A stretch of 64,000 nucleotides of DNA, from the NCBI RefSeq assembly GCF_036250065.1, contig NZ_CP109199.1, forward strand, positions 930,001 through 994,000, written 5' to 3'. Shown here in pieces: positions 4,936 through 47,174 of the stretch. The stretch's first letter is position 1; every line of letters starts with the position of its first letter. The notes under the pieces were generated by a model. It saw only the letters and a program-made list of their open reading frames with translations, was not told the origin of the DNA and did no database searches. The position numbers and the translations under genes are program-made. This DNA is from Micromonospora sp. NBC_01699. GTDB taxonomy: Bacteria; Actinomycetota; Actinomycetes; Mycobacteriales; Micromonosporaceae.

Positions 4936-5160
4936 CCCCATACCTCCCCTGTCCACCCTCCCCCGCGCCCTCACCCCTCCTCGCGATCTAGGGCAAATAC
5001 GTGTGATTGGAGATCAACAAGCACGTATTTGCCCTAGATCGGCGCGCAGAGGGGTGGGCACGCGGGGGGGAGGGGGGGAGGAGGGGGGAGGGGGAGGAGG
5101 GGAGAGGGAGGGGGGAGGGGAGGGGGTGGGGGTGGGGCACATGGGTGGGGGGAAAGGGTG
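4936..5160. repeat. Composite element 1: C-tract, inverted repeat, G-tract
   Basis: The 420-bp space between two divergent genes holds three parts. A C-rich stretch runs over about 4936-4983. A perfect 20-bp inverted repeat follows (4984-5003 and 5022-5041, core GATCTAGGGCAAATACGTG, 18-nt loop). A purine run, unbroken from 5064 to 5126, continues G-rich to about 5160. The layout matches three other elements in the window although the palindrome sequence differs. The rest of 4858-5277 shows no gene. The G-tract runs toward the ribosome binding site at 5278. Confidence 0.85.
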
Positions 5161-5277
5161 TGGGGTGGGCACGCGTTGGGTGGGGTGGGTGGTGCGGAGA
5201 ATGGCAGCCTGGGGTACGGCAGGATGGCGGCTGGGTCACGCGGCGGTGTTGTGGCAGGGCCCGGGGAGGGGAGGACC

Positions 5278-25215: not shown

Positions 25216-25253
25216 TACATCAGAGATTGCGTACGTACACCATCTCCGATGTA
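25216..25253 (+). repeat. 12-bp inverted repeat after the DUF397 gene
   Basis: TACATCAGAGAT (25216-25227) and ATCTCCGATGTA (25242-25253) are complementary except for one pair. The 14-nt loop contains the self-complementary GTACGTAC. Sequence and position resemble the dyad at 3359-3398 behind the other DUF397 gene, including a nearby GACGCGTTT word in opposite orientation. Confidence 0.75.
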
Positions 25254-25270
25254 CGTCCCAAACGCGTCAC

Positions 25271-25445
25271 GCCTCCCAGCGCGCAACACGCCGCCCCCGC
25301 CCCGCCCCGCCGCGCCCCCGCCCCGCCCCGCCCCGCCGAGCGAAGTTGACCATGAAGTTAGCGACAGAAATCGGCCTTGAAACCGTCGCTAACTTCATGA
25401 TCAACGGGGTTTGGTGGGGGTGGGGTTGGGGGTGGGGGTGGGGGG
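25271..25445. repeat. Composite element 2: C-tract, inverted repeat, G-tract
   Basis: A C-rich stretch (25271-25340) leads to a 21-bp inverted repeat (25345-25365 and 25385-25405, one mismatch, 19-nt loop, core CATGAAGTTAGCGAC). A G-rich stretch then runs to the lrp stop codon at 25446. It lies between convergent genes (DUF397 on +, Lrp on -). The rest of 25098-25445 holds only the dyad at 25216. Confidence 0.85.
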
Positions 25446-31437: not shown

Positions 31438-31746
31438 CGTCCCACCCCCACCCTCCCCGCCCTCCCACCCCGCGCCCTCCCCTCCCTCCCCGCCCCCTCC
31501 CCCCCTTCCCCCGCCGATCTTGCAGTTGTGGTGGCTCACAAAGGCCTCGAATCCGGCATCCTGGGCGCCACAACTGCAAGATCGGCGGGGAGGGCGGGGA
31601 GGGCGGGGAGGGTGAGGGAGGGTGAGGGAGGGCGGGGGCGGGGGCGGGGGCGGGGTGTAGCAGGTGTTTGGTTGATCAGGGGGTTTTCCACAGGTGGGGT
31701 GGTTGTCCACAGGGGAGGGGGTGGAGGTGGTTAGGGCGGGGGAGGG
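31438..31746. repeat. Composite element 3: C-tract, inverted repeat, G-tract
   Basis: The whole 311-bp gap before the DUF559 gene is this element. A C-rich stretch (31438-31508) leads to a perfect 23-bp inverted repeat (31509-31531 and 31568-31590, 36-nt loop). A long G-rich stretch follows to 31746. Its arm contains CGCCGATCTTGCAGTTGTGG, identical to the left arm of element 4 at 32677. Confidence 0.9.
31684..31711 (+). other. Two DnaA-box-like 9-mers
   Basis: TTTTCCACA (31684-31692) and TTGTCCACA (31703-31711) lie in the same orientation 19 bp apart. TTGTCCACA equals the preferred actinobacterial DnaA box; the first differs by one base. They sit in the G-rich arm of element 3, just before the DUF559 gene. 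With only two boxes this is not an origin. Confidence 0.45.
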
Positions 31747-32619
31747 GTGGTCAGTGTTGCTTGGGTGGAGATTGAGGGGACGTTTCGCTATCCGGAGTTG
31801 CGTACCGCTGGCATGTCGCGGGCGGTGGTCCGGCATCGGGTCGCGCGCGGTGATTTGCGACGGGTGACCCGGGGTATTTACGTCCCGGACCCGGGCCGGC
31901 TGGACCTGTTGCGGGCGGTGTTCCGGCGGCTTCCCATCGGGGCGGTGCTCGGCTACCAGTCCGCTGCCGCATTACACGGATTCGGGATGTCGGCTCCGGA
32001 GGCGATTCACGTGATCGTACCGGCGGGTGTGGCGGTGCCCAGGATTCAGGGCGTCATCGCGCACGAGGCGGTGCTGCCGGTGATCGGGCCGGTTGAACTG
32101 GCCGGCGTGCCCTGCGTACCGGCTGCCCGGTGTGCGATCGACCTGGCGCGGCAGTTGCGTCGGATGGATGCCCTGCCACTACTCGACGCCGTACTCCGTT
32201 CCGGCGCCTGCCGTACCGAGGAGTTGCGTGCCGAGGTGGGGCTGCATGGCGGGCTGCGGGGGGTGTGCCAGGCGCGGAGCCTGGTGTCGATCGCTGACTC
32301 TCGCGCGGAATGCAGGCAGGAAAGCCAACTGCGCCTGGTGCTGATCGACGCGGGGCTGCCGGTGCCGGAGCCGCAGATCTGGGTGTTGGACCGGTACGGT
32401 TCGCCGACCTACCGGCTGGACCTGGGCTACCGGGAGCGCCGGGTTGGCCTGGAGTACGACGGCGCATCCCACCTCGACCGCAACCGGCTCCGATACGACC
32501 GCGCCCGGATGAACTGGCTCGCCGCCAACCGTTGGAAGATGCGCTACTTCACCGCCCACGACCTCTACCGCCGCCCCGCCCACATAGCCGCCACAGTCCG
32601 CGCCGCCCTCCACCCCTAA
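31747..32619 (+). CDS. AbiEi-like HTH plus DUF559 nuclease-fold protein
   Basis: This is a 290-residue protein. The N-terminal winged helix (about 15-48, ELRTAGMSRAVVRHRVARGD, then RVTRGIYV) resembles AbiEi-type antitoxin and transcription-regulator modules. The C-terminal DUF559/Vsr-like PD-(D/E)xK fold has YRLDLGYRERRVGLEYDG then a basic helix and YFTAHDL; D and E residues in RLDLGY/GLEYDG match catalytic positions. Function is unknown; such genes are multicopy in Micromonosporaceae. It stands alone between two related palindromic elements inside the polyamine block, which suggests an inserted cassette. The GTG at 31747 has a poorly spaced GGGGAGG, so the N-terminus is uncertain. Confidence 0.7.
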   Translation: MVSVAWVEIEGTFRYPELRTAGMSRAVVRHRVARGDLRRVTRGIYVPDPGRLDLLRAVFRRLPIGAVLGYQSAAALHGFGMSAPEAIHVIVPAGVAVPRIQGVIAHEAVLPVIGPVELAGVPCVPAARCAIDLARQLRRMDALPLLDAVLRSGACRTEELRAEVGLHGGLRGVCQARSLVSIADSRAECRQESQLRLVLIDAGLPVPEPQIWVLDRYGSPTYRLDLGYRERRVGLEYDGASHLDRNRLRYDRARMNWLAANRWKMRYFTAHDLYRRPAHIAATVRAALHP

Positions 32620-32808
32620 CTCGCCCTCGCCCTCGCCCCACCCCCACCCCACCCCCGCCCCACCCCCGCCAAGCGTCGCCGATCTTGCAGTTGTGGCGCC
32701 CGATCCATCCCTTTTGTGGTTTGTGTACACGACCACAACTGCAAGATCGACGCGGAGAGCGGGGTGGGGAGCGGGGAGCGGGGTGGGGAGCGGGGAGTGG
32801 GGAGCGGG
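32620..32808. repeat. Composite element 4: C-tract, inverted repeat, G-tract
   Basis: C-rich DNA (to 32672) precedes an inverted repeat with perfect 16-bp arms (32681-32696 and 32733-32748). The arms extend with a bulge to 32673 and 32753 around a 36-nt loop. G-rich DNA then runs into the gabT stop. It lies between convergent genes. The left arm is identical over 20 bases to element 3. Confidence 0.9.
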
Positions 32809-47111: not shown

Positions 47112-47125
47112 GTCCCGCCGTATTC

Positions 47126-47170
47126 AACGGCCGGGTCGGCTGGCGCGCAGCGCCAGCCGACCCGGCCGTT
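47126..47170. terminator. Bidirectional terminator, 21-bp perfect stem
   Basis: Two 21-base perfectly complementary arms (47126-47146 and 47150-47170, beginning AACGGCCGGGTCGGC) with a GCA loop lie between ahcY and the convergent small membrane gene. AA at the left end and TT at the right give short U-tails in both directions. Confidence 0.92.
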
Positions 47171-47174
47171 GCCG

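What the first reader, a model, noticed from the sequence alone, without database searches (positions are those of the whole stretch)
31438..31746. A family of C-tract / palindrome / G-tract composite elements, four copies in 28 kb
Elements at 4936-5160, 25271-25445, 31438-31746 and 32620-32808 share one layout: 40-80 nt of C-rich DNA, a 16-23 bp near-perfect inverted repeat with an 18-36 nt loop, then 40-160 nt of G-rich DNA. Three different palindrome sequences occur, so the layout rather than the sequence is conserved. The left C-tract can pair with the right G-tract, giving a giant hairpin over 150 bp long. I know no named element of this form. They might be terminators, G-quadruplex/triplex sites, nucleoid-protein sites or mobile non-coding repeats.
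Basis: seen in the sequence. Interest (0 to 1): 0.7.

Follow-up and report, generated by a model that had tools for sequence, protein, structure and literature searches.

The report
Palindromes paired with matching nuclease genes
The odd C-tract/palindrome/G-tract pieces are scattered copies of short palindromes, each kind of which also brackets its own DNA-cutting-enzyme gene, and their presence goes with a local, one-strand wave of mutation in the neighbouring genes; it looks like an unrecognised kind of selfish DNA in actinobacteria.

Summary
The four window elements belong to dispersed palindrome families: A (31509-31590, 32680-32749), B (25345-25405) and C (4984-5041); a fourth, D, lies elsewhere. 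Four homologues of the protein encoded between the two A elements (31747-32619: AbiEi-like N-terminus plus Vsr-like DUF559/MTES_1575 nuclease) were found in the genome; each is bracketed by one family: A, B, C or D. In relatives, matching palindromes bracket 37 of 66 examined genes versus 1 of 997 control genes. Palindrome and protein covary. Outside the family, 1 of 5 examined genes was bracketed and 1 had an upstream palindrome. No Y1/RAYT transposase was found.

The C/G tracts are a halo: the strand reading outward is C-poor over about 200 nt on both sides, beside gene starts as well as ends. At 11 gene ends where only one of two close genomes has the element, G on the strand coding toward it was lost at 51 of 86 third positions versus 239 of 1714 elsewhere; first and second positions rise too. 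This looks more like mutation than terminator selection.

Best reading: a REP-RAYT-like mobile system with an unrelated nuclease. Mobilisation and halo chemistry are inferred.

The parts
4945..4983 (.). C-rich left halo of family C element
   Evidence: composition gradient
4984..5041 (.). Family C palindrome (CGATCTAGGGCAAATACGTG, loop 18), between divergent ThuA/ricin-lectin (-) and AMP-binding (+) genes
5042..5180 (.). G-rich right halo of family C element
25271..25344 (.). C-rich left halo of family B element
25345..25405 (.). Family B palindrome (GTTGACCATGAAGTTAGCGAC, loop 19)
25406..25445 (.). G-rich right halo of family B element, up to the stop of an Lrp/AsnC gene (-)
31438..31508 (.). 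C-rich left halo of upstream family A element
31509..31590 (.). Upstream family A palindrome (CCCCGCCGATCTTGCAGTTGTGG, loop 36)
31591..31746 (.). G-rich right halo of upstream family A element
31684..31692 (+). DnaA-box-like 9-mer TTTTCCACA
   Evidence: TTNTNCACA lies near the start of 58 of 66 nuclease genes and 3 of 1334 control genes
31703..31711 (+). DnaA-box-like 9-mer TTGTCCACA, 19 nt after the first
31747..32619 (+). Cognate nuclease gene: AbiEi_4 N-terminus plus MTES_1575/DUF559 (Vsr-like) C-terminal domain; exact start codon uncertain
   Evidence: E192, Q210, D225, E236, H242, D251 in 63 of 63 aligned rows, two of them duplicates
32620..32679 (.). C-rich left halo of downstream family A element
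32680..32749 (.). Downstream family A palindrome (CGATCTTGCAGTTGTGG, loop 36)
32750..32808 (.). G-rich right halo of downstream family A element, up to the stop of an aminotransferase gene (-)

Best explanation
These are short mobile palindromes of a REP-RAYT-like system whose enzyme is not a Y1 transposase but an AbiEi-like protein fused to a Vsr-like nuclease. The autonomous unit is palindrome - DnaA-box-like sites - nuclease gene - palindrome (in the window 31509-32749). The dispersed single palindromes are its non-autonomous copies. Each nuclease recognises its own family through a shared outer core, YGATCWWG in families A, B and C, plus family-specific inner bases. Inferred mechanism: the nuclease nicks at the palindrome; 3' ends prime repair or strand-displacement synthesis outward on both sides; C is progressively lost from that outward strand, leaving a C-poor, G-rich halo of about 200 nt that also invades neighbouring coding sequence. 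Shown here: families, bracketing, covariation, presence/absence between close genomes, strand-asymmetric substitutions. Inferred: that the nuclease moves the palindromes, that it nicks them, and why C is lost.
For: Four homologues of the window protein were found in the own genome (E up to 0.001); 4 of 4 are bracketed by one palindrome family each: A, C, D, B. In 66 distinct loci: matching palindromes on both sides 37, upstream only 18, downstream only 1, both sides but not matching 3, none 1, contig edge 6; control 1 of 997 genes. Arm and protein distances covary: Mantel r 0.54 (60 loci), 0.51 within clade A (33), 0.61 within clade B (27), 0 of 2000 permutations as high in each. The 11 of 150 family genomes with at least 9 B arms are all among the 15 with a strong B-nuclease orthologue (p 9e-14); within genus g4, 7 of 10 versus 0 of 6 (p 0.01). 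Presence/absence at orthologous sites between genomes aligned at 90.5%. Halo on both sides, beside gene ends and gene starts, absent at 80 other hairpins. At 11 clean gained gene ends, last 20 codons, G facing the element lost: third position 51/86 vs 239/1714 (p 7e-21), first 19/82 vs 85/1872 (p 2e-8), second 11/55 vs 75/1012 (p 0.003); C not raised. Tsukamurella: a gene bracketed by near-identical palindromes that recur in 8 records of that assembly; Arthrobacter: an upstream palindrome recurring in 2 records.
Against: No movement was observed, and no clear target-site duplication is visible at the gain sites inspected. Many clade-B genes have a palindrome upstream only, which would also suit an operator. 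Beside gene starts the coding signal is weaker than beside gene ends (0.21 vs 0.49 at 120-180 nt, 0.01 vs 0.22 at 180-240 nt). At second codon positions A and T also change more often (8/47 vs 50/951, 8/56 vs 38/1093), so the excess is not purely G. Tsukamurella and Arthrobacter palindromes lack the halo, and 3 of 5 homologues outside the family had no flanking palindrome. Family D gains were mostly not real: 3 of the 4 D gene ends first scored as gained have a D palindrome in the other genome too. Genome co-occurrence follows phylogeny in part, its thresholds were set after seeing the lists, and genome G020 has 8 B arms with only a weak homologue. Arm/protein covariation may partly reflect common descent. 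Direction of change was set by element presence, not by an outgroup.
Confidence: 0.6

Rival explanations
1. Bidirectional terminators: C-rich, G-poor RNA on each side of a hairpin acts as a Rho loading site for converging genes, and selection made the gene ends C-rich.
For: Hairpins are densest between convergent genes (178 per 100 kb vs 43 co-directional, 7 divergent, 1.2 coding); transcripts entering from either side are C-rich and G-poor; the coding halo is stronger at gene ends than at gene starts.
Against: The non-coding gradient is as strong beside gene starts as gene ends (0.62, 0.70, 0.58 vs 0.56, 0.72, 0.51 per 30 nt); convergent regions without these palindromes show the layout in 0 of 58 cases, with only a slight C excess in the first 15 nt; first and second codon positions change too; it does not explain one nuclease gene per palindrome family.
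Confidence: 0.15
2. Operators: AbiEi-type proteins bind inverted repeats in their own promoters; the palindromes would be regulatory sites of this regulator family, and dispersed copies its regulon.
For: The window, B and C proteins match AbiEi models; AbiEi autoregulation through inverted repeats is reported (abstract start of PMC7319586, listing); 18 of 66 loci have only an upstream palindrome.
Against: Dispersed copies lie mainly at gene 3' ends (families A-C: 53 convergent, 36 co-directional, 10 divergent, 4 in coding, of 103); 37 of 66 genes also have the palindrome downstream; the nuclease residues are invariant; it does not explain the halo.
Confidence: 0.12
3. Passive fragile sites: the palindromes form cruciforms that break, and repair alone both spreads them and mutates the flanks; the nuclease genes are incidental hosts.
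For: Stable hairpin; tandem-repeat structure in the tracts; polarity fits outward repair synthesis.
Against: 80 other hairpins, many with shorter loops, show no halo (skew 0.04); 4 of 4 bracketing with one family each and arm/protein covariation point to a specific partner.
Confidence: 0.1

Closest known systems
REP / REPIN with RAYT (TnpA-REP, Y1 tyrosine transposase)
   Same: Dispersed extragenic palindromes, mostly at gene ends, with a cognate enzyme gene bracketed by the same palindromes; families differ between and within genomes
   Different: No Y1 protein found in this genome; the enzyme is an AbiEi-like plus Vsr-like nuclease; longer arms (about 15-25 bp) and, in A-C, loops of 18-37 nt; a C-loss halo is not mentioned in the REP passages I read (PMC3733652)
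CGTC-tagged REPs (Di Nocera et al. 2013, PMC3733652; passages read)
   Same: Dispersed palindromes with no Y1 gene bracketed by them; several arms here begin CGTCGATC
   Different: Their stems are 8-9 bp with 4-5 nt loops, they lie mostly in alphaproteobacteria, and the paper reports no dedicated transposase
Vsr / DUF559 endonucleases, including the MTES_1575 REase (PMC3710099, passages) and VsrA of Caulobacter (PMC12907096, passages)
   Same: C-terminal domain matches DUF559/MTES_1575 models, with invariant E, Q, D, E, H, D
   Different: Fused to an AbiEi-like N-terminus and bracketed by palindromes; the genes beside the window copy are not a cytosine methylase
AbiE type IV toxin-antitoxin (AbiEi)
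   Same: N-terminal region of the window, B and C proteins matches AbiEi models
   Different: Neighbours of the window copy are a saccharopine dehydrogenase and an aminotransferase, not an AbiEii toxin; a nuclease domain is attached; the D protein gave no AbiEi match in Pfam

Membership tests
REP-RAYT | Short palindromes dispersed extragenically in many copies | tested here: met
REP-RAYT | Cognate enzyme gene bracketed by the same palindromes | tested here: met
   4 of 4 own copies; 37 of 66 examined loci in all
REP-RAYT | Enzyme is a Y1 (HUH) tyrosine transposase | tested here: not met
   PF01797: 0 matches in own genome; the search rings in 5 of 14 control genomes; the bracketed gene is AbiEi-like plus DUF559/MTES_1575
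REP-RAYT | Unpaired GTAG tag at one end of the repeat | tested here: not met
   consensuses of A, B, C and D with 6 nt on each side show no GTAG at the foot (D from 5 copies only; the D copies beside its gene carry TGTAGAG inside the paired arm)
CGTC-tagged REP | 8-9 bp stem, 4-5 nt loop, unpaired CGTC tag | tested here: not met
   arms about 15-25 bp, loops 18-37 nt in A-C; features taken from passages of PMC3733652
Intrinsic terminator | Hairpin followed by a run of T | tested here: not met
   average downstream composition G 0.5-0.7, T about 0.1-0.2; single copies not checked one by one
Vsr-like / PD-(D/E)XK nuclease | Conserved catalytic residues and fold | tested here: inconclusive
   E192, Q210, D225, E236, H242, D251 in 63 of 63 aligned rows, two of them duplicates; AlphaFold model mean pLDDT 59.5, residues 191-290 at 75-90 by tens except 241-250 at 44, N-terminus poor; fold search unavailable; DUF559 above its Pfam cut-off in 3 of 4 own proteins (not the window copy), MTES_1575 below its cut-off in 4 of 4
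AbiE type IV TA | AbiEii toxin partner in the operon | tested here: not met
   window copy neighbours are Sacchrp_dh and Aminotran_3; other copies not tested
Classical transposon / MITE | Target-site duplication | tested here: inconclusive
   no clear duplication at the inspected gain sites, but flanks are heavily substituted

The most novel reading that the evidence does not exclude
A previously unrecognised class of bacterial mobile DNA, reaching beyond one family of Actinomycetota, in which a replication-linked (DnaA-box-preceded) AbiEi/Vsr-type nuclease spreads its own cognate palindromes and, as a by-product, drives strand-asymmetric hypermutation of the genes on both sides; the same logic might supply the missing enzyme of CGTC-type REPs elsewhere.
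Probability: 0.45. Interest if true: 0.92.

Novelty: new variant of a known kind. Interest (0 to 1): 0.84.

Why it matters
REP-like palindromes without a Y1 enzyme are an open puzzle (PMC3733652 says its CGTC class apparently lacks a dedicated transposase). Here a non-homologous nuclease occupies the RAYT position, giving a testable candidate enzyme. If the halo is nuclease-driven, a selfish repeat is rewriting the ends of host genes with a strand-specific mutation signature, a natural case of localised, directional mutagenesis. It would also give a role to AbiEi-DUF559 genes, which the models seen here name only as DUF559, REase or antitoxin.

Tried and rejected
Rho-type selection as sole cause: rejected as main reading because the non-coding gradient is also beside gene starts and because all codon positions change. 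RAYT: no Y1 protein found. General property of gene ends or of hairpins: rejected. Specific left/right complementarity of the tracts: weak. Known RNA families: 0 Rfam matches in the window at gathering threshold. Solved-structure sequence search: nothing credible (8 matches, best E 0.34). NCBIfam: 0 matches for 3 proteins.

Weak points of my own counts. The first flanking script flagged 19 of 37 and missed short arms; the recount uses a 12-base window and adds loci. Its control of 997 own genes used called gene bounds; the own C nuclease gene in L061 was not flagged there: by the coordinates its far palindrome ends about 10 nt outside the window. The layout scan misses many real elements (24 of 58). 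In some searches I scored 15 gene ends as gained; on checking, 3 D sites have a D palindrome in the other genome and 1 B site is a shared element displaced by about 2.4 kb, so 4 were dropped and 11 kept; of the 11, two (A and A/B sites of G002) face rearranged own DNA of 9.8 and 2.6 kb. One search counted the background in both directions; one search counts it once. Gene calls are from my own caller; at least one start (31747-32619 called as 32011-32619) is wrong.

Literature, all in one open-access library: (six arm sequences) 0 papers; (DUF559 with palindrom) 2 papers, unrelated by title and abstract start; searches showed no description of this system in the titles and abstract starts listed. 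Papers seen as passages: PMC3733652, PMC3710099, PMC6006769, PMC12907096; PMC7319586 only as a listing.

Full report
Setting. The window is bases 930001-994000 of one 8.28 Mb contig. Its aminotransferase is 83-87% identical to proteins of 12 Micromonospora genomes, so the host is probably a member of the Micromonosporaceae; its own name was not available.

The observation. All four elements are as described. In 1.664 Mb of own sequence (window plus 80 spaced stretches) there are 139 inverted repeats of score 14 or more with loops up to 45, against 2 in a shuffled 1.6 Mb control; density per 100 kb is 178 between convergent genes, 43 co-directional, 7 divergent, 1.2 in coding sequence. Reading them separates hairpins with unrelated stems, mostly without skewed flanks, from four sequence families. 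A is CGATCTTGCASTTGTGG with a loop near 37, B is GTTGATCATGAAGTTAGCG with a loop near 23, C is CGATCTAGGGCAAAT with a loop of 28 (inner bases ACGTG extend the pairing in some copies), and D is AAAGAGTGGYTATCC with a short loop, seen in 5 strict copies.

The tracts belong to the families. The C-left/G-right layout appears in 24 of 58 intergenic regions with a family motif, 1 of 51 with another hairpin, 7 of 536 with neither; the reverse polarity in 0 of 58. Flank skew over the first 30 nt is 0.63 for 41 family hairpins and 0.04 for 80 others.

The tracts are a halo. Around 108 family elements the strand reading away from the palindrome is rich in G and poor in C, decaying over about 200 nt. In non-coding DNA the skew per 30 nt is 0.56, 0.72, 0.51, 0.32 beside gene ends and 0.62, 0.70, 0.58, 0.36 beside gene starts; further out it persists beside starts (0.32) but not ends (-0.01). 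In coding third positions it falls 0.77, 0.65, 0.49, 0.22, 0.14 per 60 nt to a baseline near 0.1 beside gene ends; beside gene starts it is 0.67 (60-120 nt, n=49), 0.21 (120-180, n=339) and 0.01 (180-240, n=575). So the halo is on both sides whatever the gene orientation, mainly set by distance, but its reach into coding sequence looks shorter at gene starts.

Two close genomes. Genome G002 of the same genus aligns over 307 kb at 90.5% to a contiguous own stretch. The own stretch holds 19 elements and the G002 stretch 17; 10 of the 19 have a counterpart in G002, and several are present in one genome with a short gap in the other. I first scored 15 gene ends as facing an element in one genome only: G on the strand coding toward the element was lost 108, 32 and 16 times against 16, 8 and 5 gains at codon positions 3, 1 and 2 in the last 40 codons, while the background is 487:491, 150:187 and 119:111, and total change rose 1.65, 1.55 and 1.7 fold. 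On checking, 4 of the 15 are not clean absences; without them 11 remain, with 95:11, 30:4 and 15:4, loss exceeding gain in 10 of 11. In the last 20 codons G was lost at 51 of 86 third positions against 239 of 1714 at other genes, 19 of 82 against 85 of 1872 at first, 11 of 55 against 75 of 1012 at second. C was not raised; A and T were raised at second positions (8 of 47 vs 50 of 951, 8 of 56 vs 38 of 1093). Shared elements are intermediate (32 of 88 third-position G, counted in both directions). The rise at all codon positions argues for mutation rather than selection on synonymous sites. Read on the outward strand these are mostly C-to-G and C-to-T changes. Direction was set by element presence, not by an outgroup.

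The cognate genes. Between the two A elements lies a 290-residue protein matching AbiEi_4 above, and MTES_1575 and DUF559 below, their Pfam cut-offs (AbiEi also in PADLOC for the window, B and C proteins). Four homologues were found in the genome, and each is bracketed by one family: A/A, C/C, D/D and B/B. This is the strongest single result: four genes, four families.

Relatives. Homologues were found in 132 of 150 sampled genomes of the family. Loci came only for the best matches: 66 distinct loci were examined and the named Micromonospora loci, far fewer than all homologues. Matching palindromes lie on both sides in 37, upstream only in 18, downstream only in 1, on both sides without matching in 3, none in 1, and 6 are cut by a contig edge; the control is 1 of 997 own genes. 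A YGAYCWWG core was found in the arm at 60 of 65 loci given, and arm distance follows protein distance (Mantel r 0.54; 0.51 and 0.61 within clades; 0 of 2000 permutations each). Genomes rich in B arms (at least 9; 11 of 150) are all among the 15 with a strong orthologue of the B partner (E up to 1e-90); the other four are G005, G010, G106 and G115, and G020 has 8 B arms with only a weak homologue. Within genus g4 it is 7 of 10 against 0 of 6. Two further g4 genomes (G137, G143) have a split or broken B gene and only 4 and 3 B arms. Thresholds were set after seeing the lists.

Beyond the family. Five distant homologues in plasmid-collection records were examined. In Tsukamurella tyrosinosolvens one gene sits between two near-identical 20-23 bp palindromes, and that palindrome recurs at 20 places in 8 records of that organism (a palindrome can count twice). 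In Arthrobacter sp. StoSoilB13 a 24 bp palindrome lies upstream of one gene and recurs at 12 places in 2 records. The other three had none. Neither palindrome bears a C/G halo, and none of the five genes has a sense DnaA-box-like site.

DnaA-box-like sites. TTNTNCACA occurs in sense orientation near the start of 58 of 66 nuclease genes, often as a pair about 18-19 nt apart, against 3 of 1334 control genes; 5 of 108 dispersed elements, one of them the window's own, have one within 250 nt. That this motif is the DnaA box is recalled, not from a call.

Enzyme. E192, Q210, D225, E236, H242, D251 and R252 are invariant in 63 of 63 aligned rows, two of which are duplicates.

Mechanism. The polarity of the halo is that of strands synthesised outward from 3' ends made at the palindrome, or of displaced strands with 5' ends there. 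A nick made by a Vsr-like enzyme followed by outward synthesis fits, but neither nick nor synthesis was shown, and the reason for C loss is unknown. E. coli Vsr acting at CTWGG, similar to the CWWG of the arm core, is recalled knowledge and only a hint.

Comparison. It works like REP-RAYT in architecture but is not a member: no Y1 enzyme was found and no GTAG foot is seen. I file it as a new variant of that kind with an unrelated enzyme and an added mutation halo.

Noticed in passing
L146 1440-1668 versus L274 5938-6056: At one orthologous intergenic site the own genome has a family C palindrome and G002 a family D palindrome, both in C/G-rich flanks: apparent replacement of one family by another.
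   Followed up: partly
window 31684-31711 and 58 of 66 nuclease loci: DnaA-box-like sites, often paired, before the nuclease genes, suggesting expression tied to replication.
   Followed up: partly
window 25216-25254: A further inverted repeat (ACATCAGAGATTGCGTACGTACACCATCTCCGATGT), possibly an operator related to the nearby Lrp/AsnC gene.
   Followed up: no
window 47125-47171: Perfect 22 bp hairpin with a 3 nt loop and no C-left/G-right flanks, an ordinary terminator-like hairpin.
   Followed up: no
literature lead: Caulobacter crescentus: C. crescentus is named among species with CGTC REPs, a class said to lack a dedicated transposase (PMC3733652), and has Vsr-like genes, one with a DUF559 domain (PMC12907096); whether those genes are bracketed by its REPs was not tested.
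   Followed up: no
own genome about 824800-824972: A family A and a family C palindrome lie in tandem in one intergenic region of the own genome where the G002 alignment shows neither.
   Followed up: no
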